From IMG/VR virus record IMGVR_UViG_3300042691_020057, positions 1 to 40,609 of that record: 40,609 nucleotides of DNA, one strand, 5' to 3'. Positions 1 through 39,965 of the stretch are shown here, in pieces. The translations under genes and the position numbers were made by a program. Position 1 is the first letter of the stretch. Each line of letters begins with the position of its first letter. Source of the stretch: a virus. The notes below the pieces were generated by a model. That model was given only the letters and a program-made list of their open reading frames with translations, had not been told where the DNA came from and made no database searches.

Positions 1-69
1 AAAAAAAAAATAACGCTGAAAGCCGCATTAATAAAGAGGTTCTGTATAAGGCCTCTTTTTTTTTATATT
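1..69. repeat. Direct terminal repeat, copy 1 (circular junction)
   Basis: These 69 bases are identical to 40541-40609. An exact repeat at both ends of a contig is the usual sign of a circular or circularly permuted genome with one overlap left in the assembly. The repeat holds an A-run and the terminator of the gene ending at 40541, so it is continuous with the end of the map. It could be a real short terminal repeat, but the coincidence with the contig ends favours an assembly overlap. Confidence 0.9.
33..68 (+). terminator. Rho-independent terminator of the last early unit
   Basis: AAAGAGG (33-39) pairs with CCTCTTT (52-58) and is followed by a run of T. On the circular map it lies about 30 nt downstream of the gene ending at 40541, and the next promoter starts at 85, so it separates two transcription units. 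The same terminator is present at 40573-40608. Confidence 0.85.
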
Positions 70-84
70 TTTTTTATGAAAAAG

Positions 85-115
85 TTTGCGAATTCAAAAA
101 GTCTTTTTACATTTG
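85..115 (+). promoter_or_regulatory. Bacteroidota-type promoter
   Basis: TTTG at 85-88, 19 bp, then TACATTTG at 108-115. This matches the -33 TTTG and -7 TAnnTTTG elements used by the primary sigma factor of Bacteroidota. It leaves a leader of about 25-30 nt before the ATG at 148. Confidence 0.85.
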
Positions 116-147
116 TCAAACGAAACAACTAAAAAACTCTAAGCCCT

Positions 148-1711: not shown

Positions 1712-1951
1712 ATGGCACGTGACTACACCACTATAATAGAACTCGAGGACGCAAAGCTCCGGGTAGAGTACAGCTACGAACCTTTCGACAGCTACGAATA
1801 CAGCCAAACGGGGCACGGTGGCGGTATAGAGATATACAAAATTACAGCGGCAGACAAAGAGCAGGACTTATCCTGTCTGTTAATGCTTAATTCAGCATAT
1901 ACGACTATAGAAGAGCGAATATTAGAAATGCACGAAAACGAGTATGAATAA
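1712..1951 (+). CDS. Hypothetical acidic protein (79 aa)
   Basis: Strongly acidic and tyrosine-rich (RVEYSYEPFDSYEYSQTG), ending with EERILEMHENEYE. Such highly acidic small early proteins are sometimes DNA mimics that block host DNA-binding enzymes; here this is only a possibility from composition. It overlaps the next start by 8 nt. No family recognised. Confidence 0.6.
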   Translation: MARDYTTIIELEDAKLRVEYSYEPFDSYEYSQTGHGGGIEIYKITAADKEQDLSCLLMLNSAYTTIEERILEMHENEYE

Positions 1952-2141
1952 GCCGGAAAAAAGATACGTTGTCACTCTACAGCTATACGTGTGGAGTGAC
2001 AGCCCTAAGGGGGCTATATTAGAGGGGCAGCGAATAGCTATGGAGCTCGATACTAAATTCGATAATAACGCAGGCATTATAGAGGTACACGAACAGGAAT
2101 TCGGTAGACTATGCAGCACGAAGATATACCCGGAAAGCTAA
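1944..2141 (+). CDS. Hypothetical protein (65 aa)
   Basis: Overlaps the previous gene by 8 nt and the next by 31 nt, typical of tightly packed phage genes. A YVVTLQLYVWSDSPKGA strand pair is followed by a helix (GQRIAMELDTKF), a beta-beta-alpha arrangement. No family recognised and no membrane segment. Confidence 0.55.
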   Translation: MNKPEKRYVVTLQLYVWSDSPKGAILEGQRIAMELDTKFDNNAGIIEVHEQEFGRLCSTKIYPES

Positions 2142-2371
2142 TAGAGTTTCTGCGTGAACATTCTATAGAAATAGACGGGCCTATAAAAGTAGGCTGTAAA
2201 ACGTATTACGAGCCAAATAAGAGCCGTATTACTATATATGGCATACTAACTACCTTAAACAGTAATTCGAGCGCATACAGAGCCTATGTCGCTTTGGGCC
2301 TCGAATTACTTAGAGACTGCAAAAGGAACGGAGCGCGGTTTATTAAGGGCGAACCCTTGGACGGCATATAA
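2111..2371 (+). CDS. Hypothetical protein (86 aa)
   Basis: Starts inside the previous gene (31-nt overlap). The C-terminal half has a helix (AYRAYVALGLELLRDCKRNG) that could mediate dimerisation. No domain recognised. It is the last gene before a separate, possibly leaderless promoter at 2411. Confidence 0.55.
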   Translation: MQHEDIPGKLIEFLREHSIEIDGPIKVGCKTYYEPNKSRITIYGILTTLNSNSSAYRAYVALGLELLRDCKRNGARFIKGEPLDGI

Positions 2372-2386
2372 TATTTTGCCGAATAG

Positions 2387-2418
2387 CTGCAAACTATTTC
2401 AAAAACTTACTATATTTG
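2387..2418 (+). promoter_or_regulatory. Promoter ending 4 nt before a start codon
   Basis: TATATTTG at 2411-2418 is a perfect -7 element. The -33 position holds only CTGC (2387-2390). The G of the -7 element is 4 nt before the ATG at 2423, so the transcript would begin at or within a few bases of the start codon. The same spacing recurs at 3002 and 22937. Confidence 0.65.
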
Positions 2419-2422
2419 CCAA

Positions 2423-2662
2423 ATGAAAAGCACAGAACAAAGAGACCGTAAGCCGGGTAGCGGAGGCAAGCGTAGTAATTCGGGCCGTACACCAAAGTAC
2501 AGCGAAAAAACGGGTACTATAGCCTTTCGAGTGCCTATTAGTCATATACCCCAAATACAGGAACTCGTAGCCAAATACCTTTCGAAGGTTAAACTTAAAG
2601 CGAAAAAAAGTGGAAAACGTACTAATAGTGCCCTGCTCGATAGAGAGCATATCGACTCGTAG
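2423..2662 (+). CDS. Small basic DNA-binding-like protein (79 aa)
   Basis: The N-terminal region is a glycine/arginine tail (RKPGSGGKRSNSGRTPKYSE, residues 9-28) followed by TGTIAFRVPISHIPQIQELV. An AGAGRP-like linker plus a strand-helix pair beginning with RVP is common in small phage and bacterial DNA-binding proteins of ribbon-helix-helix type. The likely role is a small regulator. The assignment rests on motif resemblance alone. The gene appears to be transcribed almost leaderless from 2411-2418. Confidence 0.6.
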   Translation: MKSTEQRDRKPGSGGKRSNSGRTPKYSEKTGTIAFRVPISHIPQIQELVAKYLSKVKLKAKKSGKRTNSALLDREHIDS

Positions 2663-2990
2663 AGATAAGACTCTTAAGGTTGTAATAGGGACACAGGAAC
2701 TAAGCCCTAATAAGGTAACTGAGTTAATGACGCAATGGAGCAACGGGTACGGAGTTATGTCCTTTAAGGGTAGCACGTTTACCGGAGCAGAAGTAGAGGT
2801 ATTAAAAGATATAAAGCTCGATGCAGAAGAGTTAGGCTCTAAAACACCCTCGCAGCGTTTGCGCTCGACTCTGTACGTCCTTTATGAGCGAAACCCGGAG
2901 GGGTATAAGGACTTTACCTCTTATTATATTTCGGCTATGGAGCGCATTATATCTATGGTAAGAAAAAAAATAGAGGCTTACGACATTTGA
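2610..2990 (+). CDS. Hypothetical protein (126 aa)
   Basis: Starts with GTG at 2610 after GCGAAAAAAA, overlapping the previous gene by 53 nt. The C-terminal half is helical (QRLRSTLYVLYERNPEGYKD and AMERIISMVRKKIEAYD). Its position after a small DNA-binding-like protein suggests a cotranscribed accessory factor. No family recognised. A later start is possible, but the next in-frame ATG would remove a third of the protein. Confidence 0.55.
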   Translation: MENVLIVPCSIESISTRRDKTLKVVIGTQELSPNKVTELMTQWSNGYGVMSFKGSTFTGAEVEVLKDIKLDAEELGSKTPSQRLRSTLYVLYERNPEGYKDFTSYYISAMERIISMVRKKIEAYDI

Positions 2991-3009
2991 AAAAGTTTAC
3001 GTATATTTG
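2979..3009 (+). promoter_or_regulatory. Promoter ending 4 nt before a start codon
   Basis: TATATTTG at 3002-3009, with ATG at 3014, exactly 4 nt after the final G as at 2411/2423. The -33 region is degenerate; a TTTG occurs nearer at 2986-2989. This geometry argues that translation starts at 3014 and not at the in-frame TTG at 2987, which lies inside the promoter. Confidence 0.6.
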
Positions 3010-3013
3010 CCAT

Positions 3014-3406
3014 ATGGAAAATTTTAGAAAATACTACAGCCGTTTAAAGGCAGGCATATGCTTTGAGCAGCAAACAAACACGGACGTTTTAGAAATGTGG
3101 GTATGCAACGAATTAGAGCCGTACGAATACCTAATAAAGCTTAATAAAGCGGAATTAGAGGTATATTCACAAAGGGCTTTAGCTATAGAGAATTGGAGTC
3201 CGGCTGAATTAGGCATAGTTCGGGTATACGAGGGGTATACGAATAAAAAAGAGGAAGCAAGCTATTTATTAGACGTAGCGCATAATAGCAAGTATTACGG
3301 CCTTTGGATATACGAAAGTGAATTAAACAGCGCAAAAGTCCCAAAGGGGGACGAAAGCCTCTTAATAGAGGCTATAAACCTAAGTAACGAAAAAGTAACC
3401 GAATGA
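3014..3406 (+). CDS. Hypothetical protein (130 aa)
   Basis: Begins MENFRKYYSRL. I chose ATG 3014 over TTG 2987 because the promoter core lies between them. It contains two sulfur residues near the N-terminus (AGICFEQQ) and an acidic C-terminus. No domain recognised. It overlaps the following ParB-like gene by 4 nt, so it may be the first gene of the 3014-7895 operon and could belong to that system. Confidence 0.6.
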   Translation: MENFRKYYSRLKAGICFEQQTNTDVLEMWVCNELEPYEYLIKLNKAELEVYSQRALAIENWSPAELGIVRVYEGYTNKKEEASYLLDVAHNSKYYGLWIYESELNSAKVPKGDESLLIEAINLSNEKVTE

Positions 3407-4023
3407 AAATAGAAACCTTAAAAATATCGGATATAAAGCCGAACGAAAACAACCCACGTACAATTCGAGACGAAAAGTATAATAAGCTTTTGCAGTCTAT
3501 AAAGGACTTCCCCGAAATGCTTAAGCTTCGGCCTATAGTCCTTAATTCGGACTATGTCGTTATAGGTGGAAATATGCGCTATAAAGCCTGCAAAGAGGCA
3601 GGGCTTAAGGAAGTGCCTGTTATTATAGCTAAACAGTTAACTCCGGAGCAAGAAAGGGAGTTCGCTATTAAGGATAATATTTCTAACGGGGATTGGAATT
3701 GGAGCGCATTATTAGAGGGGTGGGATAGCACAGAGCTTGTAGGTTGGGGTTTCGATAGCTATTCATTCTCTACCGTAGAAACTGTTTTTGGTGGCTTTAA
3801 GGACGAAGAGGAGGAGGGGACAGATACACCGTTAGCGGAAATAAGCTACTCCGACGAACCTAAGATTACAGATAACGGGTATGTCCGCTACGAAATAGTA
3901 CTTAAAGAGGAAGATAAAAAGCTTTTAAACTCAGTCGTTAACAGCGTTAAGAAAACAATGCAGTATACTAACGCGGAGGCCTTAATGCATATAATAAGAG
4001 CTTATAAAGCACAGGGTAAATGA
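3403..4023 (+). CDS. ParB/Srx-fold nuclease-like domain protein (206 aa)
   Basis: Residues 1-90 form a ParB N-terminal (ParB/sulfiredoxin fold) domain: ISDIKPNENNPRTI, then PIVLNSDYVVIGGNMRYKAC with the GGxxRxxA-type nucleotide-binding box, then EVPVIIAKQLTPEQEREF. In many phages this domain is fused to a DNA methyltransferase. Here it is followed only by a short WNWSALLEGWDSTELVGWGF segment, an acidic linker (DEEEEGTD) and a C-terminal helical region, with no SAM motif or DPPY. It opens the six-gene cassette ended by a second ParB-like protein at 7374. It may bind CTP/ATP or guide the cassette to a substrate, which is inference. Confidence 0.85.
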   Translation: MKIETLKISDIKPNENNPRTIRDEKYNKLLQSIKDFPEMLKLRPIVLNSDYVVIGGNMRYKACKEAGLKEVPVIIAKQLTPEQEREFAIKDNISNGDWNWSALLEGWDSTELVGWGFDSYSFSTVETVFGGFKDEEEEGTDTPLAEISYSDEPKITDNGYVRYEIVLKEEDKKLLNSVVNSVKKTMQYTNAEALMHIIRAYKAQGK

Positions 4024-4829
4024 AAAACGAGAATAACTCTTTCCTCGTTTTCGATAAGTCGGAAACGGGTTTATTATATAACGACGAAAGTAACCCGTTA
4101 TACCCTATCCGGTATTACAACGTAGTTAATTCGGAGGGCTCGTATGGGCTTTATAAGAGCGGTTGCAGCTACTTTGGCTACGTCTATAATGGTAGCGTGG
4201 TACTTAGCACAGAAAAAAGGCCTGTGCAGGGGCTTTCTAAAGGTATGTACTTTTCCCTTTCAGAACCTTTCGAGATTTTAAACTATACCGCATATGGCTC
4301 TTTAATAGTCGTAGAGGTGTTAAATACAGCCGGGGCATACCAAAGTACCACCTATAGCTCTATGTACGCTGTAGGAGGCCCTATAGAAAAAATAGGACGG
4401 TTAAAATATATAGACGGCTGTACAGACAGTTTATTAATACCTCCGGTAAAGAAAGGAAACCCCTGTTTAAACCACTTGCATTTCCCTCCCGGAATAGACC
4501 AAACGCAGCACACCCACCCCTCTCATAGAATTGGTATAGTGGCAGGGGGTAATGGGGAATGTATTACCCCGTTCGGCAGTATGCCGCTAACGGAGGGAAC
4601 TATTTTTATTATTAAAGCGTGGGACGGTAGCACGTACTCCACAGGCGAAAGCGGCAGAGAATACCCTATAGGCCAACACGCCTTTAGGACCTTTGAAAAC
4701 ACTATGGACGTAATAGCCTTTCACCCGGACAGCGACTTTGGACCTACAGACGAAGCCCACCCTATGATAAACAGAACTATAGTAGAGGGTATTTCCGCTT
4801 CATTAATAGACTCTATTAGGACGAAATAA
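4020..4829 (+). CDS. Cupin-fold protein (269 aa)
   Basis: The C-terminal half is cupin-like: HLHFPPGIDQTQHTHPSHRI (residues 152-171) provides the HxH metal motif, followed by GIVAGGNGECITPFG, an EGTIFIIKA strand, and later histidines H220 and H235. The N-terminal half (residues 45-105) reads like a second beta-barrel without the histidines, so this may be a bicupin with one metal site. It overlaps the ParB gene by 4 nt and the PP-loop gene by 1 nt, so it is coupled to both. Cupins include dioxygenases, isomerases and sugar-modifying enzymes; the substrate cannot be told from sequence. Confidence 0.75.
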   Translation: MKNENNSFLVFDKSETGLLYNDESNPLYPIRYYNVVNSEGSYGLYKSGCSYFGYVYNGSVVLSTEKRPVQGLSKGMYFSLSEPFEILNYTAYGSLIVVEVLNTAGAYQSTTYSSMYAVGGPIEKIGRLKYIDGCTDSLLIPPVKKGNPCLNHLHFPPGIDQTQHTHPSHRIGIVAGGNGECITPFGSMPLTEGTIFIIKAWDGSTYSTGESGREYPIGQHAFRTFENTMDVIAFHPDSDFGPTDEAHPMINRTIVEGISASLIDSIRTK

Positions 4830-5608
4830 TGCTACGCGTTAAACAGGGAGAAAATAACGAGAGGTTTCTACGCACAGAGGCTGAGATACGCAGTATAATA
4901 AGCTTTGGTAGTATAAACAACCTAATAGATGCTACGGTAGAGGACATTAAAAAAAACCTTAAGGGCCGCTATGGCCTTGCGTGGAGTGGAGGTAAGGACA
5001 GCGTAGTATTAGATTTCGTATGTAAGAAAGTCGGAAATTACCCGTCCTGTATAGGTATGACAGACGAACTCGAATACCCGGAATTTTTAAGGTTTGTTAC
5101 TGAAAATATGCCCTCCGATTTAGTGGTGTATAATTCGGGGCATACTTTAAAATGGCTCTCAGAGAACGAAAGTTGGCTATTTCCCAAAACCGGGGAACAG
5201 GCGGCTAAATGGTTTAAGGCCGTTCAGCATAACGCACAGAATAAGTTTTACTCAGATAAGCGTTTAGACCTAATATTAACCGGGAGACGCATATTAGATA
5301 AAAACTTTTGCGGTACTAACGGGAAGTACTTAAACAAGTCTACCGGAGTAGTTCGGTATTCGCCCCTATACAAGTGGACGCACGAAGAGATTTTAGCCTG
5401 TATGTCGTATTACAACCTGCCCCGTGCACCTTTCTATAGTTGGCCTAATGGGTTTATAGTAGGTAGCGGAAGTTGGGCCGCGAGGCAATGGACCGGAAGC
5501 GTAGAGGCTGCGTGGTCGGAAGTTTATTCTATAGACTCTACCGTAGTATTAAAGGCCTCAGAATACATTAAAAGCGCGAAAGACTATGTGCGGACTTTGG
5601 GGGTTTGA
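4829..5608 (+). CDS. PP-loop ATPase, PAPS reductase-like (259 aa)
   Basis: GLAWSGGKDSVVLDFV carries the PP-loop SGGKDS at residues 53-58, which binds ATP and adenylates substrates in N-type ATP pyrophosphatases. The later segments LILTGRRILDKNFC and VVRYSPLYKWTHEEILACM, followed by NLPRAPFY, match the PAPS reductase/DndC arrangement. It starts at the TAATG junction with the cupin gene and overlaps the class II amidotransferase gene by 23 nt. A PP-loop ATPase coupled to a glutaminase recalls asparagine synthetase B and Gat-QueC, where ammonia from glutamine amidates an adenylated carboxylate. The substrate here is unknown; sulfur transfer is an alternative. Confidence 0.85.
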   Translation: MLRVKQGENNERFLRTEAEIRSIISFGSINNLIDATVEDIKKNLKGRYGLAWSGGKDSVVLDFVCKKVGNYPSCIGMTDELEYPEFLRFVTENMPSDLVVYNSGHTLKWLSENESWLFPKTGEQAAKWFKAVQHNAQNKFYSDKRLDLILTGRRILDKNFCGTNGKYLNKSTGVVRYSPLYKWTHEEILACMSYYNLPRAPFYSWPNGFIVGSGSWAARQWTGSVEAAWSEVYSIDSTVVLKASEYIKSAKDYVRTLGV

Positions 5609-6125
5609 GACGGTAGGAGGTAAGCCCTCTGAGTCTATTATACACGAAATAATACAAAGAGCGGACGAAAGAGGTGGACATTCGTACGGGCTGTACGCTT
5701 TAGACGGTAAGAGGAAAGCCCACGTAATAAAGGGGGAAGGTAGGGTAAATAGCTCGTATGTAATAGACCTGCTTAAAAACTGCGTTTTAGCTGTTGGCCA
5801 CAGTAGATTAGCGACCTATGGAGAACGCTCTATTAATAATACGCAGCCTTTAATATTAAAAGACTTCGTTATAGCGCATAATGGCAATATAGCGAACTAT
5901 AAAGAGATAATGTACGCTCACGGGTATATACCCACTACGGACGTAGATAGTGAAGCTATAGCGTGTTTAATGCACGAAAAAGAGCCTGTTATAAAAGGGG
6001 CGTACTTAGCGGTGGACCTTAAGAGGTTCGACGGCATTAAGTATTACTCCAACGGCTACCCGTTATACAAAACAAATATAAACGGGGTTAACTACTTTTG
6101 TTCTAAACTATGGGAAACGACTTAA
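5586..6125 (+). CDS. Class II glutamine amidotransferase domain protein (179 aa)
   Basis: Begins MCGLWGFE; removal of Met exposes Cys2 as the N-terminal nucleophile of Ntn-type glutaminases. Other conserved features are GHSRLATYG (R74), FVIAHNGNIANY (N99, G100) and TTDVDSEAIA (D121/E123), as in GlmS, PurF and AsnB. At 179 residues it is only the glutaminase domain, without the SIS or synthetase half. It overlaps PP-loop genes on both sides (23 and 16 nt), so the ammonia acceptor is probably one of those ATPases. The start is fixed by the required Met-Cys. Confidence 0.9.
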   Translation: MCGLWGFETVGGKPSESIIHEIIQRADERGGHSYGLYALDGKRKAHVIKGEGRVNSSYVIDLLKNCVLAVGHSRLATYGERSINNTQPLILKDFVIAHNGNIANYKEIMYAHGYIPTTDVDSEAIACLMHEKEPVIKGAYLAVDLKRFDGIKYYSNGYPLYKTNINGVNYFCSKLWETT

Positions 6126-7402
6126 AGAAAAAAAAGTACTTAGACTCCGACGTATACGTAGAGGCGAAAGAACGCATTAAAACGCTCTACGAAAACTACG
6201 ACAGAGTTATAGTGGACTTTTCCGGGGGGAAAGATAGCACGGCCGTATTATACCTCTGTATAGAAGTAGCTACAGAGCTTAATAAGCTACCTGTAGAAGC
6301 AGTATACATAGACCACGAAATAGAGGGGCTGCATACGATAGAGCTAATAGAGGCCGTACGTAATATGCCGGAGGTAGATTTAAAGTGGTATTTTTTACCG
6401 TTTAGCCTACGTAATGCAGCCTCGTTTAATGCTCCTTATTGGTATCCGTGGCATCCGGACGAAAGAGAGCTGTGGTGCAGAGAAATACCGGACTATGGTA
6501 TTACTGAATTAGAGGGGCACGTTTTTAAATACGACAAAAACTACGCCCACCCGGACGGGGAAAAGTATAAAGCGTTAGGAGTGAAAGAGTGTATGTCGTT
6601 TCAAACTATGGTTAACCTACACGCGCATAACTACGAAAAGCAGGGTTTAACAGTAATAAGCCTTGCAGGCATACGCGCACAGGAAAGTATGGTTAGAAGG
6701 GCCATTATGTCACGCAAGCGGAATGAATGCTATATGTCCTCCCGTGAAGCGGTAGCGTACCCCATTTATGATTGGTTAGCAAAAGACGTTTGGAAGTATA
6801 TAAAGCAGACAGGCAGGCCGTATAATAAGGAGTACGACGAAATGAATAAGACGGAGCAGTACAACCAATTAGAGAAACAGCGCGTAGGCTCTGTATTTGC
6901 GGAAGAGTCTCTGAGAATACTTGACCAATGGCAGGTACGTTATACCGACTTTTGGCATAAAATCTTAGACAGGGCCGAAGGTATTAAAACAGCGTGGAGA
7001 TATTGTAACGACGGAATATATACCGGGACTAAAGTCGAGAAAGAAACGGATATTAAGTGGAGCGAATACATAACTAAGATATTAAGCTCTATGAGTCCTA
7101 AGACGCGTAAGATAGGCATTAAAGCTATGGAGCTTATTATAGTTTGGCACAAAAACAGGACCGACTACCCTATATCTGAAAGGGAAGCGGAAGCCTGTCC
7201 ATTAACGGGTATTAGTTGGGAGTTCTTAGCAAAGGTCGTAATACGTGGAGACACTAAGCAGCGACAGTTACAAAGAGTTACTATATTAGCAGCGAAAGCC
7301 CAACAGAGAGCCGGAATAAGTATGGAAGAGGCCGTTATGCTATACGGAAATGAAAAACTAAAAAAACGACTATATGAAAAAGCGAAGTCTCCCCGACGGT
7401 AG
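6110..7402 (+). CDS. IbrA-like PAPS reductase/PP-loop ATPase (430 aa)
   Basis: RVIVDFSGGKDSTAVLYLCI holds SGGKDS at residues 38-43. Further family features are AVYIDHEIEGLHTIELIEAV, a WYPWHPDERELWC segment, SLAGIRAQESMVRRAIMS and AVAYPIYDWLAKDVWKYI. The C-terminal ~150 residues resemble the extension of the IbrA/DUF3440 branch. IbrA/IbrB pairs were named for an influence on immunoglobulin-binding protein expression in E. coli prophages, but their chemistry is not settled. It overlaps the glutaminase by 16 nt and the IbrB-like gene by 29 nt. It probably adenylates a substrate; genuine PAPS reduction is unlikely without the C-terminal ECGLH-type cysteine motif, which I do not see. Confidence 0.85.
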   Translation: MGNDLKKKKYLDSDVYVEAKERIKTLYENYDRVIVDFSGGKDSTAVLYLCIEVATELNKLPVEAVYIDHEIEGLHTIELIEAVRNMPEVDLKWYFLPFSLRNAASFNAPYWYPWHPDERELWCREIPDYGITELEGHVFKYDKNYAHPDGEKYKALGVKECMSFQTMVNLHAHNYEKQGLTVISLAGIRAQESMVRRAIMSRKRNECYMSSREAVAYPIYDWLAKDVWKYIKQTGRPYNKEYDEMNKTEQYNQLEKQRVGSVFAEESLRILDQWQVRYTDFWHKILDRAEGIKTAWRYCNDGIYTGTKVEKETDIKWSEYITKILSSMSPKTRKIGIKAMELIIVWHKNRTDYPISEREAEACPLTGISWEFLAKVVIRGDTKQRQLQRVTILAAKAQQRAGISMEEAVMLYGNEKLKKRLYEKAKSPRR

Positions 7403-7895
7403 GGTAATGCCTCTCGAGCGCGTACAATGGATTGAAAGAGAGAAACTTAACCCTAACTCGTATAACCCTAACTCCGTAGCCCCTCCGGAGCTAACGCTAC
7501 TTAAAACCTCTATATTAGAGGACGGGTGGACGCAGCCTATAGTAATAAACCCGGATATGACTATAGTGGACGGCTTCCATAGGTGGACCGTTTCCGGACA
7601 TAAAGAGATATACGAACTAACGCAGGGGTACGTGCCTGTAGTGGTATTAGAGCCGAAAGATAACGAGCACCAAAAAATGAGCACTATACGGCATAATAGG
7701 GCGCGTGGCAGACACGGTGTATTACAAATGGGCCGCATAGTACAGTCTATGATTGACTCCGGCTTACCTGTGGAGGAAGTGATGAAACGGCTTTCTATGG
7801 AAAGGGAAGAGGTTATACGCTTAACTAATACGCAGGGTGTATTAGGCCACCCGGACGTAGACCTGCCTTACTCTAAGGCGTGGACTCCGGAATAA
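7374..7895 (+). CDS. IbrB-like ParB domain protein (173 aa)
   Basis: WIEREKLNPNSYNPNSVAPP, then SILEDGWTQPIVINPDMTIV and DGFHRWTVSG form the ParB N-terminal domain (residues 13-80) with the DGFHRW nucleotide box. The following NRARGRHGVLQMGRIVQSMI and VEEVMKRLSMEREEV form a small helical region. Gene order PP-loop then ParB, with a 29-nt overlap, is that of ibrA-ibrB. It ends the cassette that begins with another ParB-like protein. Proposed role: ATP/CTP-binding partner of the PP-loop ATPase. Confidence 0.85.
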   Translation: MKKRSLPDGRVMPLERVQWIEREKLNPNSYNPNSVAPPELTLLKTSILEDGWTQPIVINPDMTIVDGFHRWTVSGHKEIYELTQGYVPVVVLEPKDNEHQKMSTIRHNRARGRHGVLQMGRIVQSMIDSGLPVEEVMKRLSMEREEVIRLTNTQGVLGHPDVDLPYSKAWTPE

Positions 7896-7926
7896 TATCT
7901 GAGAACAGACAAAAAACAGACGCATT

Positions 7927-8244
7927 ATGGCTTTCCCACACGACGGTAAAAAATTTAAAAAAGGACAGTCCGGAAACCCCGGAGGCAGGCCTAAAGCACT
8001 TCCCGACATAAAGGACGTATTAATAGACGCTTTAGGGGAAGAGCAGAATGGTGTTAGTGCGCTTAAGGCTATAGTACTTAGCCTACGTAATAAGGCCCTT
8101 AAAGGGGACGTAAAGAGCTGTCTTTCGCTTATCGAAATGTACTACGGTAAGCCAAAGCAAACGGTAGAGCAGCGGTTCGACTCTAACGAGCCGTTAGTGA
8201 TTGTATTGAGCGACGAAGCTCCTAATGAAAATTCGGCCGAATGA
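7927..8244 (+). CDS. Probable terminase small subunit (DUF5681-like, 105 aa)
   Basis: The N-terminus KFKKGQSGNPGGRPKALPDI is the DUF5681 signature (KGQSGNPGGRP) found in small proteins just upstream of phage large terminases. Helices follow (IKDVLIDALG, ALKAIVLSLRNKALKGD, VKSCLSLIEMYYGKPKQ). It would recognise the packaging site and load the large subunit. A non-coding array of dyad repeats lies between it and terL, suggesting it binds there. Small terminases are poorly conserved, so this rests on motif and position. Confidence 0.7.
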   Translation: MAFPHDGKKFKKGQSGNPGGRPKALPDIKDVLIDALGEEQNGVSALKAIVLSLRNKALKGDVKSCLSLIEMYYGKPKQTVEQRFDSNEPLVIVLSDEAPNENSAE

Positions 8245-8252
8245 GTAATACA

Positions 8253-8546
8253 GCGAATTGTATTAGAAACGGAATAGAATTCGTGGCCGTAACCGTTGCA
8301 ACGAATTGTATTAATACGCTCCCTTCCGCTAATAGAATTTCTTATTACAACCGTTGGAACGAATTGTATTAGAGGGAAGGGGCTCTCTAATAGAATTTCT
8401 TATTACAACCGTTCTAACGAATTCTATTAATGACAGGCATATGTCTAATAGGAATTGTAGAGAAAAGCGTTCTAACGAATTCTATTAGCGTAAATACCCG
8501 GTCTAATAGAATTGCTTACTATAACCGTTGTAACGAATTGTATTAA
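8253..8546. repeat. 58-bp-period array of 44-bp dyad repeats between terS and terL
   Basis: This fills the 328-nt gene-free gap. Each unit opens CTAATAGAATT, has CGTTnnAACG at its centre-right, and ends CGAATTSTATTAR. Units lie at 8271-8314, 8329-8372, 8387-8430, 8445-8488 and 8503-8546, starting exactly 58 bp apart. A further right arm ends at 8266, 48 bp before the end of the first full unit. The 8329 and 8387 units share 27 identical leading bases. Unit 8329-8372 is also flanked by CCCTTCC and GGGAAGG, extending its dyad. Candidate roles: packaging (pac) site, or operator of the terL/tail operon. Confidence 0.9.
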
Positions 8547-8572
8547 TTTAGAAACAAATTACACGCAGGCGA

Positions 8573-9850
8573 ATGAGAGTAAACCTCACTAATAGACAGT
8601 CTTTAGCATATAAGGACGCTGTATACAATAATAAGCGCGTCGTAGTATTCGGTGGGGCTATTAGAGGGGGGAAAACGTGGTGGCTACTTATTACACTCAG
8701 TAGCCTCGCATTAATGTATGACAGGTCTCGGTGGGTTATTATAAGAAAGACTCTTCCCGACCTAAAGCGTACGACCTTCCCCTCATTTCAATCTATATTA
8801 CTTTCCGGGCTACAGGGAAAGGTTAAATCGTGGAATAAGGACACTAACGTTATAACGTTTAATAACGACAGCGAACTGCTTTTTATGACAGAGAACTACT
8901 CGGAAGATAAGGACCTAAACCGCTTTAGAGGGCTCGAGGTAAACGGAGCAGGGCTTGACGAAGTAAACGAATTACAGGAAGCGACGTTCTACAAGGTGCA
9001 GGAACGTATAGGTTCGTGGAATTCAGCAAAGGGAAACCCTCCTATAGTCTGTTTAGCTACCTGTAACCCGGCTAATAATTGGGTTAAGGAAATTATATAT
9101 AAGCGTTATAAGGAGGGGACTCTACCGGAGAAATGGAGTTATATACCCTCTAAAATAACAGACAACCCCTATATACCCAAAGAATACTTAGAGTCATTAA
9201 AAGAGCTCCCACCTATACAGTATGCGCGGTTCGTGGAGGGGGATTGGGAGGTAATGGATGACAGCGTTAACCCTTTCCTATATGAATTCGACGAACGTAA
9301 GCATATAGATGACAGCATAACTCTTAACCGGAATATTCCGGTATATTTCTCTGTAGACTTTAACGTTAACCCTCTATGCGGCCTCGTAATACAACAGGTC
9401 GGAAAGTCTATGTATGTAGTGGACGAAATACGAGCAGACAGAGGAAGCATAGACGCGTTATGCGACAGGATAGAGGCCTATAATATACCCACCGGGTTAA
9501 TACGAATTACCGGGGACGCTATGGGTGCAGGGCGGTCCGTTTTCCTCCGGGACAATTCGAGCGCGTATATGATTATTAAAAAGCGTCTACACCTTTCGGA
9601 CGGACAGTTTATTATACCACAGAACCCGACTCATAAAAATAGCCGTATTGACTGTAACGCTGTATTAAAGCGGCTCGAGGTTAAGATAAACAGCGTAAGC
9701 TGTAAGGGCTTCCTTTATGACTGCAAACGGGTAGAGTGCGACTCCGAAGGTGGCATAATAAAACAAAACAGAAATAAACTACAGGAACGTGCAGACTATT
9801 TAGATTGTTTTCGTTATTTTGTAAACGCAAAAATGAAACCGCTTTTATGA
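8573..9850 (+). CDS. terL: Terminase large subunit (425 aa)
   Basis: ATP-driven DNA packaging motor. Walker A is GGAIRGGKT (residues 27-35), Walker B with catalytic acid is GAGLDE (125-130), and the coupling motif is LATCNPAN (161-168). The C-terminal RNase H-like nuclease begins with VYFSVDFNVNP (D262), has a second acid in RITGDAMG (D315) and ends with ERADYLDCFRYFVN. Length is normal for the family. Its ATG is 26 nt after the repeat array, and I see no consensus promoter in between. It overlaps the next gene by 4 nt. Confidence 0.95.
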   Translation: MRVNLTNRQSLAYKDAVYNNKRVVVFGGAIRGGKTWWLLITLSSLALMYDRSRWVIIRKTLPDLKRTTFPSFQSILLSGLQGKVKSWNKDTNVITFNNDSELLFMTENYSEDKDLNRFRGLEVNGAGLDEVNELQEATFYKVQERIGSWNSAKGNPPIVCLATCNPANNWVKEIIYKRYKEGTLPEKWSYIPSKITDNPYIPKEYLESLKELPPIQYARFVEGDWEVMDDSVNPFLYEFDERKHIDDSITLNRNIPVYFSVDFNVNPLCGLVIQQVGKSMYVVDEIRADRGSIDALCDRIEAYNIPTGLIRITGDAMGAGRSVFLRDNSSAYMIIKKRLHLSDGQFIIPQNPTHKNSRIDCNAVLKRLEVKINSVSCKGFLYDCKRVECDSEGGIIKQNRNKLQERADYLDCFRYFVNAKMKPLL

Positions 9851-10200
9851 GTGTATGTAATAAATGCTTAGACGCTCCACTCGTAGACTTTTGCTCCGGC
9901 AGTCTCGTTATAGGTGGAGTTCCATTGGAGGCCACTTTCACGGTATATATTCAGCATAATGCTACGGGTTTATTACAGGCTATTACGGTACAGTCTAACG
10001 CCTCCGGATATACCACTATACCCTTAGGGCCTAACGACATAATATTAGACGCGTTACAGGGGTATACTCTATGGCTAACGTACGGGGAAGCAAACTCTAC
10101 TCAGCTATCTATAACGGTAGGGGAAGAGTTCTATTACTGCATAAACATACAAACTGTAAAGAGCGTTAACCCCCCGGAAATAACTTGGATAAACCCTTAG
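9847..10200 (+). CDS. Hypothetical virion-region protein (117 aa)
   Basis: Starts at the ATGA overlap with terL. The opening CNKCLDAPLVDFC is followed by a mostly beta sequence (ATFTVYIQHNATG, TLWLTYGEANSTQLSIT) like a small immunoglobulin-type or beta-sandwich domain. A minor structural or decoration role is possible. No family recognised. Confidence 0.6.
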   Translation: MSVCNKCLDAPLVDFCSGSLVIGGVPLEATFTVYIQHNATGLLQAITVQSNASGYTTIPLGPNDIILDALQGYTLWLTYGEANSTQLSITVGEEFYYCINIQTVKSVNPPEITWINP

Positions 10201-10205
10201 TATAT

Positions 10206-10430
10206 ATGAAACGACTTAACCCCTTTCCTAAACTATTTAGCATAGTTAAAGGTTGGTACTTACTTATTACAGATAATAGGGCCTCACGCGTTATGTACGA
10301 CAGCCGTATGCCTGTATGTAATACCTGCCAAAACCGGAATAAAGCTCTTAACACCTGCAACCTGTGCGGCTGTTTTCTGCCTGCTAAAACGCGTGTAATA
10401 GAGGAAGAGTGCCCTGCTAAATTTTGGTAA
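10206..10430 (+). CDS. Small zinc-ribbon-like protein (74 aa)
   Basis: MPVCNTCQNRNKALNTCNLC and GCFLPAKTR plus CPAKFW give a CxxC...CxxCGC...C pattern ending CPxxxW, typical of small metal-binding proteins in Bacteroidota phages and prophages. I take ATG 10206 (MKRLNPFPK) since it clears the previous stop; an upstream ATG at 10185 is possible. Role unknown; its site near the tail chaperone position suggests an assembly factor. Confidence 0.65.
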   Translation: MKRLNPFPKLFSIVKGWYLLITDNRASRVMYDSRMPVCNTCQNRNKALNTCNLCGCFLPAKTRVIEEECPAKFW

Positions 10431-10681
10431 TGAATATTACTTTAACAGCTATAGAGTACGAAAGCCCGGAGGGTGTAACGTGCCCGGAGTTAAGAAACCA
10501 ACTTAGGAAAAGGGTAGGCTATTTACCCGTATGCGTTATGGTTAATGCCATAGACTATATGACTACCAACCGGGAAGGCACGGAGGTTAATATGCGGTCC
10601 GGGGACAGTTTTATAGTTATAGAGTCTATAGAGGAAATAAACGAGAAACTATATGCTTCGACACTTTACCCGTTTAATTAA
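10430..10681 (+). CDS. Hypothetical protein (83 aa)
   Basis: Coupled by a TAATG stop-start overlap. Begins MNITLTAIEYESPEGV; mixed alpha/beta (VGYLPVCVMVNAIDYMT), with no membrane segment. The following gene starts 29 nt before its end. No family recognised; its position suggests a small tail-assembly component. Confidence 0.55.
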   Translation: MNITLTAIEYESPEGVTCPELRNQLRKRVGYLPVCVMVNAIDYMTTNREGTEVNMRSGDSFIVIESIEEINEKLYASTLYPFN

Positions 10682-11279
10682 GAAACATAGGTGGGTTAAA
10701 AAAAACCTCCCTAAACACAGCTTAATACATATATTCACAAAAGACGGTATTCGTTATTACAAATATCCTAAAGAGTCCAACCTCCCATTAGAGCGGTTCG
10801 CTATGGTAATGGCCCTCTTAGAGCGGTTGGGTAGCGGCCTATCCGGTAAAGAAATGGAGTCGATATTAACCGAAATGGAAAAGGATATAGCATTAGGCCT
10901 CTCGAACCCCAAAAACGCGGCCCGTGTAGCTATGTACGTGCATATTATAAGAGAGCGACAGGATACCGTTATACATAAGGATATACTGCTAAACCTTGCT
11001 GCAACTTTTATTATAAGGGAGGGGGAAGAGCCTACAGTTATTAACCCGGACATACACCGTGAAAAGCTTACTACTTTCGAGGCAATGTGCGACGGAGGGG
11101 CACACGATTTTTTTATGAGTGCGGATATAGAGCCGCTAAGACCGTTAATGAGTATGTCTCCAAGCGATATGCAGACATTATGGGAGCACAATATATTACT
11201 CCAACGGCAGCTACACGACTCGTTAACCCTGTTGAATATTCACCGGGCTACAGGGCGAAAAGAGCAAAAGACACAATAA
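10653..11279 (+). CDS. Hypothetical protein in tail-chaperone position (208 aa)
   Basis: Helix-rich protein (FAMVMALLERLGSGLSGKEM, LTEMEKDIALGLSNPKNAAR) lying two genes before the tape measure, where many siphophages encode the first tail assembly chaperone. Its stop overlaps the start of the next small gene (TAATG at 11277-11281), which is in the -1 frame. No sequence match to a chaperone family is claimed. Confidence 0.6.
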   Translation: MLRHFTRLIKKHRWVKKNLPKHSLIHIFTKDGIRYYKYPKESNLPLERFAMVMALLERLGSGLSGKEMESILTEMEKDIALGLSNPKNAARVAMYVHIIRERQDTVIHKDILLNLAATFIIREGEEPTVINPDIHREKLTTFEAMCDGGAHDFFMSADIEPLRPLMSMSPSDMQTLWEHNILLQRQLHDSLTLLNIHRATGRKEQKTQ

Positions 11280-11455
11280 TGGAGCAGGCGTTAGCCATAT
11301 GCGAAGGAAGCGTAGTGGACTACAAAGAATTAATAAACGGGGATATAGAGCTATTTATTATTAAATTAGCGTCGTACTTAAAAGCTAATAATAGTGGCAG
11401 CGAACGTCCTAATAACCTTCGAAGCGGAAACCTCCAACCTCGAGCAGGGAATTAA
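11279..11455 (+). CDS. Small protein before the tape measure (58 aa)
   Basis: Starts MEQALAICEGS at the TAATG overlap and extends 62 nt into the tape-measure gene. Helical (VVDYKELINGDIELFIIKLA), it is a candidate second tail chaperone, made either from its own start or by -1 frameshifting from the preceding gene. I see no convincing slippery heptamer near the overlap, so independent initiation is favoured. Confidence 0.5.
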   Translation: MEQALAICEGSVVDYKELINGDIELFIIKLASYLKANNSGSERPNNLRSGNLQPRAGN

Positions 11456-14400
11456 CAATATAAAGGCCTCTACCGACTCAGCGGTTAAAATAGCGAAAGA
11501 CGGAGCAGGCAAAATAAAAGAGGGCTTTAATGAAGCCGGAAAGGCCTTAGGGGCTGCATTCGGTTCGCAGCAGGTTAACGCTGCATTAAAAAACCTCACT
11601 ACAGAGTCCGATAAACTAACGGCCTCGTTAGATAAACTGCAAAAGGAAGAGGTACAGCTAATAGCCACGGGCCAACTTGCCTCCAAGTCATACAAGGAGA
11701 ACCAAGTCGAACAGGCACGGTTAAAAAGCAGGCTATTAGAAACGCAGAAAGCACAGAAAAAACTTAACGACGAATTCGGAACGGGCACGGGTAAAGCGGC
11801 CTCCTTAAAGCAACAGCTTAAAGCGGCTACAGTAGAGCTACAGAAATTAGAGGACGCAGGCTTAGAGGGGACGGAAGCTTTTAACCAACTATTACTAAAG
11901 ACAGCGAACCTAAGAGACCGGGTAGGAGACCTAAACGAGCGTGTAACGGTATTAGCTTCGGACACTTTTAAATTCGATGCAGCGGTTGACGCTGTGCAGC
12001 AATTAGCCGGGGCTTTTGCAGTAGTACAGGGGGCGGCTGCATTATTCGGAACTGAGAACGAAGAGCTGCAAAAAACAATAGCTAAAACACAGGGGGCTAT
12101 AGCTTTATTACAGGGAGTGCAGCAATTAGCGACCTTTGTAAGGGGGCAGTCCGCTGCAAAAATAGCCATAGAGAACTTCCTTTTAAAGGTTAATGAAGCC
12201 TCCGTTAGACAGTCCGCTACAACCTACACTATATTCGGGCGTACTATCCAATTCACCTCTGTACAGCTAAATATATTTAAGGCCGCGTTAGCCACTACCG
12301 GAATAGGCCTCCTAATATTAGGAGTGTCCTTATTAATCGAACGTATGCAGGGGGCTGTAAGCGCGACAGAGCGTTACAACCAAACTTTAAAAAATTCTAA
12401 AGAGGCTATAGCTACCGTAGGGGAAAGCATTAAAACTCTACGGGAAATACAGAAAGATGCGGACACGGACTTTAGAGTAGCCTCCGGGGAAATTAGTCAA
12501 GCGCAAGCGGACAGGGAAGCGGCAGTTAAGAAGGTTGCAGACGAAACAAAGAAAGGAAACCTCGAGGCCACTAAAGGCATATTAGCTACGCAAAAATCAT
12601 ACGAACAACTTACGGCCACAATAGAAAATAATAGAGCAGCGGCAGAGGCCGCGAGCAGGTCTACGAGGGAGTCCGCTCCACTTACCGCGGCAAGGCTAAC
12701 CAAAGAAAACGAAGAGCTAAAAAAGCAGGCCGCTAATGTTAAAAAGGAATTAGAAAAGCAGACTAAGCAACGGGCCGACTTATTAAGTGCAGGCCGTGAC
12801 GCGGAAGCTTCTATAAATAAAAAGTTCGACAAAATAGAAGCGGATAACGCCAAAGCTAAAGCTAAAGAAATAAACGATAACGCAAAGAAATTAGCGGAAG
12901 AGCGGATACGCATACAGCTAAACGTACTTAAAACGGCCCAAATAAACGACGGCATTAACTTAGAGAACCAAATAAAAATAGCTGAAAAAGAGGCCGAACT
13001 AAATAAAAAAAGCGCACAAAACGCCACCGAAAACAGGGCTTTAGCAAACTCACAAATAGCCTTAATAGAGGCAGAGCTGCAACAGAAAATAGAAGAGCTG
13101 CGAAAAGGGGAAGTAGTAAAGCAGGCGAATATTGAATTACAGAGGGTTAAAAATGCCGAAACCGCTAATAACGCAATACTCGAGAATAGTCTATCTGTGC
13201 TCCAAAAAGAGGAAGAGATAGCTAATGCAAAAGCCGCGTTAATAAAAGACACGGCAGAAAGAGAGGTAGAGTTAGAGCGTATACGTTTGGAGTTCGCACA
13301 GAAAAGAAAAGATATATCTAATAAAGCAGAAGCGGAGGGCCTTCGTCTAATAGAGAAACGTATAGAATTGGAGCAGGTTGTAAACGGAGCTACCCTTAAA
13401 AATGATACGGAGCTATTACAGGCCCGGGCCGACCTCCGGAAGTTAGATATACAGAACAGTACATTAAGCGAAAAGGAGAAAGCCGCACAGATACTCCTAA
13501 TAAACGCACAGCTTCAGAAAGATATTACACAGCTTACGATAGACGAACAAATAAAGCGAAACAATATCGAACTGCAAAAAATAGCTACCTTAAAAGCACA
13601 GGGTAAGGACACGGTAAAGGACCGAATAAGTGAGGCCACCTTAGTTAGTGAAAACGAGAAAAAGGAACTACTTAAGAGGTTAGGAGATACGGAAGAGTAC
13701 AGAGCCAACGTAGAGCGCATTAACGCAGAACTCGAGGCTAATATTAAAGAGATACGAGTAGAGAATATTAAAAATACTATAGACCAAATAGTAGACTATT
13801 CGCAACAGGTAGTAAGTACTCTTAACGCACTAAACGACGTACAGAAGCAATTAACGGAAAACTATATATTAAAGCTACAGGAACAAAATGCAGCTGAAAT
13901 AGAGGGTATTAATAACTCCGGCAAAACATATGTCGAAAAGCAGCGGTTAATTGACGCGGCAAACTTTCGGACAGCCCGACTCGTAGCACAGGAAAAAACC
14001 CGGCAGGCGAAAGCGGATAAAGCTTTGGCTCTATTCCAAGCTATAGTTAATACGGCTTCCGGTATAGCTAAAGCAATTCCTAACCCGGCATTAATAGCCA
14101 TAGCAGGCATAACAGGAGCTGCACAAATAGCCGCTATAGCGGCCCAACCTATACCGAAATTTAAGAAAGGGGGTTGGGTAAAGGGAGCTTCCCACGAAGG
14201 GGGTGGAGTCGCAGCCGAATTAGAGGGAGGGGAATACGTAATAAAAAAGAGCGCAGCCTCCAAATATGCTAAAGAAATAGAAGCTATTAACACCTCCGGC
14301 TTAAGCTATAAAAATCTTATAACTGAAAAGTATATTAAGCCGTCTATAGTTAGCTATGCATTAAACGCGAAAAGAGAGCGTGACATAAAAGTTAATGCTA

Positions 14401-14513
14401 CTCTGAATAGTCGAGGTATGGAGAAGCAAATTAAGGGCCTTAGAAGCGACCTAAATAACTTTGTGCAGCGGAAGGTAACCGTAATAAAAGACAGTCGAAA
14501 CCAATGGCAGTAA
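11394..14513 (+). CDS. Tail tape measure protein (1039 aa)
   Basis: Starts with GTG at 11394 (MAANVLITFEAETSNL). Long alpha-helical coiled coil rich in Ala, Lys, Glu and Gln across residues 60-850, with two hydrophobic stretches: near residues 285-315 (ALATTGIGLLILGVSLLIE) and near 880-925 (NPALIAIAGITGAAQIAAIA). The C-terminal GGWVKGASHEGGGVAAELEG then GEYVIKKSAA is a typical tape-measure tail motif. The protein sets tail length; at about 1.5 angstrom per residue this predicts roughly 150 nm (inference). It overlaps the next gene by 10 nt. Confidence 0.92.
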   Translation: MAANVLITFEAETSNLEQGINNIKASTDSAVKIAKDGAGKIKEGFNEAGKALGAAFGSQQVNAALKNLTTESDKLTASLDKLQKEEVQLIATGQLASKSYKENQVEQARLKSRLLETQKAQKKLNDEFGTGTGKAASLKQQLKAATVELQKLEDAGLEGTEAFNQLLLKTANLRDRVGDLNERVTVLASDTFKFDAAVDAVQQLAGAFAVVQGAAALFGTENEELQKTIAKTQGAIALLQGVQQLATFVRGQSAAKIAIENFLLKVNEASVRQSATTYTIFGRTIQFTSVQLNIFKAALATTGIGLLILGVSLLIERMQGAVSATERYNQTLKNSKEAIATVGESIKTLREIQKDADTDFRVASGEISQAQADREAAVKKVADETKKGNLEATKGILATQKSYEQLTATIENNRAAAEAASRSTRESAPLTAARLTKENEELKKQAANVKKELEKQTKQRADLLSAGRDAEASINKKFDKIEADNAKAKAKEINDNAKKLAEERIRIQLNVLKTAQINDGINLENQIKIAEKEAELNKKSAQNATENRALANSQIALIEAELQQKIEELRKGEVVKQANIELQRVKNAETANNAILENSLSVLQKEEEIANAKAALIKDTAEREVELERIRLEFAQKRKDISNKAEAEGLRLIEKRIELEQVVNGATLKNDTELLQARADLRKLDIQNSTLSEKEKAAQILLINAQLQKDITQLTIDEQIKRNNIELQKIATLKAQGKDTVKDRISEATLVSENEKKELLKRLGDTEEYRANVERINAELEANIKEIRVENIKNTIDQIVDYSQQVVSTLNALNDVQKQLTENYILKLQEQNAAEIEGINNSGKTYVEKQRLIDAANFRTARLVAQEKTRQAKADKALALFQAIVNTASGIAKAIPNPALIAIAGITGAAQIAAIAAQPIPKFKKGGWVKGASHEGGGVAAELEGGEYVIKKSAASKYAKEIEAINTSGLSYKNLITEKYIKPSIVSYALNAKRERDIKVNATLNSRGMEKQIKGLRSDLNNFVQRKVTVIKDSRNQWQ

Positions 14514-31373: not shown

Positions 31374-31544
31374 TTAGATTGGAAAGCTATGAAGCACCTC
31401 CATTAGTTCGTCGAGCTTATCTGATAATTCAATAAACTTAGGCGTTTGTTCGTGGTTTCCGTATTGGTCGCAAGGGAGGTTTAAATTTAAAATACCTTTT
31501 TCGATTGCTTCGATTTCTGCGATTATTGAATTTCTTGTTTTCAT
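31374..31544 (-). CDS. Small hypothetical minus-strand protein (56 aa)
   Basis: MKTRNSIIAEIEAIEKGILN, then CDQYGNHEQTPKFIELSDKL and DELMEVLHSFP; two helices separated by a loop. Start chosen at 31544 because the promoter core at 31566-31596 sits just upstream; a longer start at 31595 would lie inside the promoter. The start codon overlaps the only CATG noticed in the genome. Unknown function. Confidence 0.6.
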   Translation of the reverse strand: MKTRNSIIAEIEAIEKGILNLNLPCDQYGNHEQTPKFIELSDKLDELMEVLHSFPI

Positions 31545-31565
31545 GGCTGCTTTTGTTTTGTTTGA

Positions 31566-31596
31566 CAAATATACAACCATTATTTGATTTTGCAAA
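31566..31596 (-). promoter_or_regulatory. Bacteroidota-type promoter, minus strand
   Basis: On the minus strand TTTG (complement of 31593-31596), 19 bp, TATATTTG (complement of 31566-31573), with AAAGTTTGCAAAATCAAAT around the -33 as in plus-strand early promoters. The leader AAACAAAACAAAAGCAGCC leads to ATG at 31544. Confidence 0.88.
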
Positions 31597-31625
31597 CTTT
31601 ATCAAAAAATAATTCAAAATATTTT

Positions 31626-32706: not shown

Positions 32707-33273
32707 ATGTCTGTCTACTATATACTCGATAACTCTTTAGATATATTATACGCAGTTACAGAACCCTCCGGGGAACTCGTAGAGTCGAACGAGCTTTTTA
32801 AGGGCTTTACGTCGCATATAAAGCCACGAAAGTTTAAAGACGTGTTAGAAGATGGTTCGGACGTAGATGCGTTATTACAGGCCGTTAAAAGAGCTAACGA
32901 GCACGAACCCGAATGCGTACGCTTCTACGCTAAGACAAAACAGAAAAGCGGTGCGGCCCGGTGGATAATGTGGAATGTATACTGCATTAACGGGGCTTTA
33001 CACTTTATAGGGGTAAATTTATATGACGTAACTTCCATAACGAACCACGAATACGAGCGGCAACAGATACTATTAGAAGAGTTTAGGTTTATGCTTTCGC
33101 ACGAACTTAGACAGCCCTTAACCTCTGTTTCGAGTTTAATATCTTTGCTGCTTAATAAAGCGAATATGGACGAAAAAGAGAGAAATAAAATGCTTAAGAT
33201 GATAGCGGAAAGCGTAGAGAAATTGGACGAAAGCATTAAGGCCTTAGTCCGAAAAGCTGCACGGGAATTGTAA
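32707..33273 (+). CDS. PAS plus HisKA domain protein without kinase domain (188 aa)
   Basis: Residues 1-112 fit a PAS-like sensor (YYILDNSLDILYAVTEPSGE, ending HFIGVNLYDVTSITN). Residues 122-185 form a histidine kinase dimerisation/phosphoacceptor hairpin: FRFMLSHELRQPLTSVSSLI holds the H-box with H132, and KMLKMIAESVEKLDESIKAL is the second helix. The ATP-binding domain (N, G1, F, G2 boxes) is absent and the stop is clean. It could be a phospho-acceptor or decoy that captures host two-component signals. It is encoded in the lysis cluster, so it may influence lysis timing; both ideas are inference. Confidence 0.85.
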   Translation: MSVYYILDNSLDILYAVTEPSGELVESNELFKGFTSHIKPRKFKDVLEDGSDVDALLQAVKRANEHEPECVRFYAKTKQKSGAARWIMWNVYCINGALHFIGVNLYDVTSITNHEYERQQILLEEFRFMLSHELRQPLTSVSSLISLLLNKANMDEKERNKMLKMIAESVEKLDESIKALVRKAAREL

Positions 33274-34276: not shown

Positions 34277-34330
34277 CAGGTTCATTAACAGGCGTTAGTA
34301 TTTAGATACTTAAAAAAAAGTTTGAAAAGG

Positions 34331-34361
34331 TTTGCATAATAAAAAAGGTTGTTTACCTTTG
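34331..34361 (+). promoter_or_regulatory. Bacteroidota-type promoter of the replication region
   Basis: TTTG 34331-34334, 19 bp, TACCTTTG 34354-34361, preceded by AAAAAAAAGTTTGAAAAGG. The leader of about 20 nt leads to ATG 34385 (METTQ). It probably starts the operon running to the RNA/terminator at 37537-37640. Confidence 0.87.
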
Positions 34362-34384
34362 CCCGTAAATAACTTAATAACTAT

Positions 34385-39862: not shown

Positions 39863-39890
39863 CCGCTGTGAGCAAGGCTTTCAGAAGGAC
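39856..39890. repeat. Element B, matching 22711-22744
   Basis: GCGTTTTCCGCTGTGAGCAA followed by GGCTTTCAGAAGGAC; about 30 of 34 positions match element A. The two copies lie 17 kb apart, each in a gene-free gap. Unknown function. Confidence 0.75.
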
Positions 39891-39910
39891 TAAAAAAAGT
39901 TTAGAAAAAG

Positions 39911-39941
39911 TTTGCAAAACCAAATACTCTTTCTATATTTG
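39911..39941 (+). promoter_or_regulatory. Bacteroidota-type promoter
   Basis: TTTG 39911-39914, 19 bp, TATATTTG 39934-39941, in the shared block AAAAAGTTTGCAAAACCAAA. The leader TCAAACGAAAAACAAAAAAG leads to CACTATGGAAAC at 39963-39974. Confidence 0.88.
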
Positions 39942-39965
39942 TCAAACGAAAAACAAAAAAGCACT

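What the first reader, a model, noticed from the sequence alone, without database searches (positions are those of the whole stretch)
3403..7895. ParB-bracketed six-gene cassette: ParB, cupin, PP-loop, glutaminase, PP-loop, ParB
Seen: six genes in one direction, each overlapping the next by 1-29 nt, with an SGGKDS PP-loop in two, an N-terminal Cys glutaminase, an HxH cupin and two ParB N-terminal domains at the ends. Known: IbrA/IbrB (PP-loop plus ParB) is a recurrent phage pair of unsettled chemistry; glutaminase plus PP-loop ATPase is the AsnB and Gat-QueC logic. Inference: the set makes an amide or other nitrogen/sulfur modification on DNA, nucleotide or protein, for defence evasion or counter-defence. 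I know of no described system with this exact composition.
Basis: partly seen in the sequence, partly recalled or inferred. Interest (0 to 1): 0.85.

Follow-up and report, generated by a model that had tools for sequence, protein, structure and literature searches.

The report
Modular phage ParB/PP-loop modification cassette
Six overlapping phage genes next to the DNA-packaging genes form a widespread but, as far as I could find, undescribed enzyme cassette, most likely for chemically modifying DNA, in which one PP-loop enzyme is almost always paired with either a glutaminase or a solute transporter that could feed it.

Summary
In detail: six same-strand genes (3403-7895), overlapping by 1-29 nt, lie directly upstream of terminase. 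The cassette is real and widespread. All 80 examined cupin relatives (415 found in IMG/VR) sit with the cassette, usually as ParB1-cupin-IbrA-IbrB, and at least 10 further contigs carry the six-gene set (5 complete). The minimal core is ParB1-IbrA-IbrB, also found in cultured phages (mycobacteriophage Kamiyu, Faecalibacterium phage Taranis). "ParB-bracketed" is incidental: order varies.

First, the glutaminase always directly follows the short PP-loop gene (19 loci, several gene orders), and the pair is missing as a unit from a 73%-identical sister phage: it looks like a split, AsnB-like glutamine-dependent ligase. Second, in relatives without the glutaminase that PP-loop gene is coupled to a Na+/solute symporter (nearest solved relatives: DUR3 urea symporters) or a related permease; 101 of 104 loci have some supplier. 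Neither PP-loop protein keeps sulfur-chemistry cysteines, so nitrogen chemistry is favoured over PAPS reduction.

Best reading: a modular phage nucleic-acid (probably DNA-base) modification pathway. The product is unknown; DNA as target is inferred, not shown. No description was found in the paper library.

The parts
3403..4023 (+). ParB1: ParB/Srx-fold N-terminal domain protein, core gene; the same domain type is fused to phage DNA methyltransferases
   Evidence: PF02195; phrog_498 DNA methyltransferase 6e-30, phrog_620; PADLOC MTase_II 4e-14
4020..4829 (+). bicupin, conserved H164-x-H166, R170, H220; essentially specific to this cassette
   Evidence: AlphaFold2 pLDDT 93.6; best PDB folds (S)-ureidoglycine aminohydrolase/DUF861 bicupins, TM about 0.6
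4829..5608 (+). PPs: short PAPS-reductase-like PP-loop protein (AWSGGKDS), no conserved catalytic Cys; proposed N-ligase synthetase subunit
5586..6125 (+). GAT: free-standing class-II glutaminase (Cys2 nucleophile), proposed ammonia subunit for PPs
6110..7402 (+). IbrA-like PP-loop protein with DUF3440; window clade carries an altered motif (DHE, no C95, L100)
7374..7895 (+). IbrB-like ParB/Srx protein
4830..6122 (+). PPs-GAT block, present or absent as a unit between sister phages
   Evidence: (window vs L125)
7927..8244 (+). DUF5681 gene, probable small terminase or packaging protein (neighbour, not part of the cassette)
8573..9850 (+). terminase large subunit (neighbour)

Best explanation
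A phage-encoded nucleic-acid modification cassette, most likely acting on the phage's own DNA. Core: ParB1 and IbrB (ParB/Srx-fold, probably NTP-dependent proteins) with IbrA (a PP-loop enzyme that would adenylate its target). Add-on modules set or extend the chemistry: the bicupin tailors an intermediate, and PPs plus GAT act as a split, AsnB-like glutamine-dependent ligase in which GAT releases ammonia from glutamine and PPs, using ATP, installs it as an amide or amine. In gut Firmicute and Bacteroidales phages the same PP-loop enzyme is supplied instead by a DUR3-like Na+/solute symporter or a related permease. Shown: gene content, conservation, intact catalytic motifs, PPs-GAT adjacency and joint presence or absence, PPs-supplier coupling. 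Inferred: that PPs and GAT interact, N rather than S chemistry, DNA as target, and protection from host restriction as the benefit.
For: Cassette recurrence. GAT directly follows PPs in all 19 loci that have it, whatever comes next (IbrA, ParB1 or cupin) (spacing). Sister phage L125 is collinear at about 73% DNA identity except for the missing PPs-GAT pair. 101 of 104 PPs loci with enough upstream sequence carry a symporter, permease or GAT, and the supplier changes about 8 times on the PPs tree. Symporter nearest to DUR3. No conserved sulfur-transfer Cys in PPs; the nearly conserved IbrA Cys95 is Phe in the window. DNA link: ParB1-type domain fused to DNA methyltransferases; among IbrA's nearest named enzymes is DndC; IbrAB next to SNF2-type helicases in cultured phages; fixed place beside terminase.
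Against: No nucleoside or biochemical data. No methyltransferase or hydroxymethylase was recognised in the window genes scanned to create a handle. Most cupin cassettes lack PPs and GAT, so that step is optional. Transporter specificity cannot be read from distant similarity. ParB/Srx proteins can act on small molecules or proteins.
Confidence: 0.55

Rival explanations
1. The cassette makes a modified free nucleotide, small molecule, RNA or protein modification (for example to disarm host nucleotide-based immunity) rather than modifying DNA.
For: ParB/Srx-fold proteins include small-molecule kinases (SerK gives a trace hit); solute importers and a putative outer-membrane barrel in relatives suggest an imported small-molecule substrate; the cupin resembles small-molecule bicupins.
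Against: ParB1-methyltransferase fusions and IbrAB-SNF2 helicase neighbourhoods point to DNA; position beside terminase.
Confidence: 0.27
2. Auxiliary metabolism: the PAPS-reductase-like genes boost host sulfate (cysteine) assimilation, as phage 'cysH' genes are usually annotated.
For: Pfam PAPS_reduct hits; prophage genes of this type have been listed as 'host metabolism' (PMC11318856).
Against: Scores far below the curated cysH cut-offs (18.8 vs 154 bits); no conserved C-terminal catalytic Cys; two ParB proteins and a glutaminase have no role in that pathway.
Confidence: 0.03
3. A modification-based or exclusion defence carried by phages and prophages against other phages.
For: Common in prophages; IbrA is distantly related to DndC and BrxP.
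Against: No nuclease or toxin partner in the window cassette; PADLOC finds only MTase_II, DndC and BrxP resemblance. Some relatives do hold a PD-(D/E)XK gene between IbrA and IbrB.
Confidence: 0.1
4. Transcriptional co-activators of prophage genes (the deposited annotation of IbrA/IbrB), the other genes being passengers.
For: Name used in phage records and in a subsystem category.
Against: Conserved enzyme active sites and tight PPs-supplier coupling.
Confidence: 0.05

Closest known systems
IbrA/IbrB pair of phages (phrog_2302, phrog_2159)
   Same: The last two genes are members; same order and overlap in Streptococcus and mycobacteriophages
   Different: The pairs viewed in cultured phages lack the bicupin, short PP-loop and glutaminase; the window's IbrA has altered conserved residues
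CmoX/CmoY phage carboxymethylcytosine amide-ligase pathway (PMC12783734)
   Same: Phage ATP-dependent, AsnB-like ligase, some with a glutaminase domain; ParB domain proteins nearby
   Different: CmoY is AsnB-type; here the PP-loop is PAPS-reductase-like, the glutaminase is a separate gene, and no CmoX or CmoA was recognised in the window
AsnB and Gat-QueC (class-II glutaminase plus PP-loop)
   Same: Same division of labour between glutaminase and PP-loop ATPase
   Different: Split genes; no Asn_synthase domain; QueC match below the cut-off and on IbrA, not PPs
Dnd/BREX-4 phosphorothioation (DndC, BrxP, DndB)
   Same: PAPS-reductase-like PP-loop plus ParB-superfamily partner
   Different: Below the DndC cut-off; no Fe-S Cys set; no DndA, DndD or DndE seen
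(S)-ureidoglycine aminohydrolase / DUF861 bicupins
   Same: Nearest solved folds of the cupin
   Different: 10-15% identity; substrate unknown

Membership tests
IbrA/IbrB | Adjacent IbrA (PAPS_reduct + DUF3440) and IbrB (ParB) genes | tested here: met
   phrog_2302 2e-66, phrog_2159 5e-64, DUF3440 1.4e-7
PAPS reductase (CysH) | C-terminal catalytic cysteine; curated model score | tested here: not met
   no C-terminal Cys conserved in PPs; one search scores 18.8 vs 154 bits
Asparagine synthetase B | Class-II glutaminase fused to an Asn_synthase domain | tested here: not met
   free-standing GATase; the neighbour is a PAPS_reduct type PP-loop protein, no Asn_synthase hit
Class-II glutaminase (Ntn) domain | N-terminal Cys nucleophile plus Arg, Asn-Gly and Asp residues | tested here: met
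   C2, R74, N99, G100 100%, D121 93% of 15 sequences
QueC / Gat-QueC | QueC domain above cut-off | tested here: not met
   QueC 11.9 bits vs cut-off 22, on IbrA only
Dnd phosphorothioation | DndC above cut-off, Fe-S cysteines, DndA/D/E partners | tested here: not met
   41.6 vs 290 bits; no conserved Cys set; partners absent among scanned genes
CmoX/CmoY pathway | Cytosine carboxymethyltransferase and Cx-SAM synthase present | tested here: inconclusive
   No methyltransferase recognised in most of the larger window ORFs, but not every ORF was scanned with Pfam
Phage DNA modification system | Modified nucleoside in virion DNA dependent on the genes | not testable with these tools
   needs LC-MS

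The most novel reading that the evidence does not exclude
A new class of phage DNA hypermodification in which a PAPS-reductase-like PP-loop ligase attaches nitrogen taken either from glutamine or from an imported urea-like solute, the import being done by a transporter encoded by the phage itself.
Probability: 0.25. Interest if true: 0.92.

Novelty: new variant of a known kind. Interest (0 to 1): 0.74.

Why it matters
IbrA-like genes occur in hundreds of sequenced phages and have no settled chemistry; phage 'PAPS reductase' genes are often listed as metabolism. The modular variants give strong hints about the chemistry (nitrogen supply to one PP-loop enzyme), show that many such genes need not be sulfur metabolism, and supply tractable test phages: a core-only version in M. 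smegmatis phages and a permease version in Faecalibacterium phages. If true, it would add a new phage modification pathway with, unusually, phage-encoded solute import as part of it.

Tried and rejected
A single-sequence search with PPs in IMG/VR found nothing; a two-row alignment then worked. The cupin has no relative in 50,697 deposited phages. Sulfur assimilation rejected. A broad GAT alignment was too diverse for the locus search, so a narrower one was used. The idea that the altered IbrA motif tracks the presence of GAT was rejected: it marks one clade, includes GAT-less L125 and L150, and is absent from other GAT cassettes. Strict exclusion of GAT and symporter was rejected: three Lachnospiraceae loci have both. 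The c50 permease has no Pfam hit but aligns to the symporter profile. Literature searches found no description; the library lacks most subscription papers and all preprints.

Full report
Observation. The window is a 40,609-base virus record. The six genes are present as described, on one strand, overlapping by 4, 1, 23, 16 and 29 nt, directly followed by DUF5681 and terminase large subunit genes. Domain identities hold up: ParB1; bicupin; a short PAPS-reductase-like PP-loop protein (PPs here); a free-standing class-II glutaminase (GAT); IbrA with DUF3440; IbrB. Against a sister phage (L125) third codon positions differ far more than first and second, so the shared genes are under purifying selection. 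No Shine-Dalgarno-like motif precedes the starts, which fits a Bacteroidota host but does not prove it.

Co-location. Searching with a two-row PPs alignment gave 46 viral and 73 genome loci. Among 104 PPs loci with more than 2.5 kb of upstream sequence, 101 have ParB1, 97 IbrA and 101 IbrB nearby, mostly just upstream of terminase genes. Searching with the cupin gave 415 relatives in IMG/VR; of the 80 kept, all lie beside ParB1 and/or IbrA. The commonest form is ParB1-cupin-IbrA-IbrB (47 loci). The full six-gene set is complete in L009, L133, L141, L185 and L211, and is cut by contig ends in L006, L007, L008, L189, L194 and L195. L211 is very divergent yet has the same order. The cupin has no hit among 50,697 deposited phages.

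Core and modules. The constant part is ParB1-IbrA-IbrB. It occurs without the other genes in mycobacteriophage Kamiyu (gp1, gp4, gp5, then terminase) and in phage vB_RanS_PJN03, and with only a permease added in Faecalibacterium phage Taranis. Added modules are: cupin; PPs with GAT; PPs with a sodium/solute symporter (Firmicutes; in Bacteroidales also a roughly 200-residue protein that looks like an outer-membrane barrel); PPs with a second permease type; and in some cupin cassettes a different short PP-loop protein. The cupin was never seen with the symporter.

PPs and GAT belong together. In all 19 loci with GAT it follows PPs directly, while the next gene may be IbrA, ParB1 or cupin (spacing). 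L125 is collinear with the window at about 73% DNA identity from 1906 to 14428 except that the PPs-GAT pair is missing and cupin runs straight into IbrA; neither gene was found elsewhere in that 38-kb record, with the caveat that the search had no positive control in that record. L150 also lacks the pair. Hence GAT's partner is PPs rather than IbrA: a split glutamine-dependent ligase, by analogy with AsnB and the CmoY ligases (PMC12783734). That the proteins interact is inference.

Suppliers. 101 of 104 PPs loci have a symporter, permease or GAT. On a PPs tree the supplier type changes about 8 times against 19 for shuffled labels, and GAT status 5 times; some deep branches are weak, so these are estimates. 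The symporter is closest, among solved structures, to DUR3 urea symporters (3e-27, next a choline-transporter relative at 2e-20). The second permease aligns with it by profile comparison (94%). The cupin model (pLDDT 93.6) is nearest to (S)-ureidoglycine aminohydrolase and DUF861 bicupins (TM about 0.6). These point to small nitrogen-rich solutes but do not fix a substrate.

Nitrogen or sulfur. PPs keeps S-x-G-K-D-S, G152, R154, E186 and Y203 but no Cys column above 75% and no CysH C-terminal motif; IbrA's most conserved Cys (C95, 92%) is Phe in the window. GAT keeps all catalytic residues. The PPs model (pLDDT 96.3) is only a distant match to solved PAPS reductases (TM about 0.5). This favours nitrogen chemistry; sulfur brought by a carrier protein is not excluded. 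The window-type IbrA clade (100/100 support, long stem) has replaced DEE/C95/H100 by DHE/other/L100, perhaps a changed substrate.

Target. Evidence for DNA is circumstantial: ParB1's best PHROG is a ParB-DNA methyltransferase fusion (PADLOC MTase_II); DndC is among IbrA's nearest named enzymes; IbrA-IbrB adjoins SNF2-type helicases in Streptococcus, Flavobacterium and Fusobacterium phages; and the cassette sits beside terminase. No methyltransferase or hydroxymethylase was recognised in the window genes scanned.

Known or new. Paper searches found only annotations of IbrA/IbrB and phage 'PAPS reductase' genes, for example as host metabolism (PMC11318856) or as a gene whose role in phage metabolism had not been studied (PMC5463345). 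The individual families are known; the composition, the PPs-GAT unit and the glutaminase/transporter exchange appear undescribed, within the limits of an open-licence library. I therefore file it as a new variant built on the known IbrA/IbrB pair.

Limits. Loci are related to each other, so counts are not independent events; E-values from locus searches are relative; contigs may be fragments; one PPs label (L049-L051) covers a divergent relative; no chemistry has been measured.

Noticed in passing
window 52-132, 1140-1223, 31537-31619 (-), 34321-34403, 39889-39973: Dispersed 70-90 bp repeats shared with several copies in the sister phage L125; possible regulatory or replication elements.
   Followed up: no
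L171:3455-4021: PD-(D/E)XK (Cas4-like) gene inserted between IbrA and IbrB in many cupin cassettes.
   Followed up: partly
L143:4866-5348: About 160-residue protein of unknown family between IbrA and IbrB in 12 loci.
   Followed up: no
L103:9375-9974: Putative outer-membrane barrel protein between symporter and PPs in Bacteroidales prophages, suggesting a two-membrane import route.
   Followed up: no
L216:2273-5262, L215:1700-4610, L217:3998-7349: IbrA-IbrB pairs next to SNF2-type helicases in cultured Streptococcus, Flavobacterium and Fusobacterium phages.
   Followed up: partly
L221:73-4474: Mycobacteriophage Kamiyu gp1, gp4, gp5 are ParB1, IbrA, IbrB next to terminase: a laboratory-ready version of the core.
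   Followed up: yes
window 32707-33273: Phage gene with a C-terminal HisKA-like domain match.
   Followed up: no
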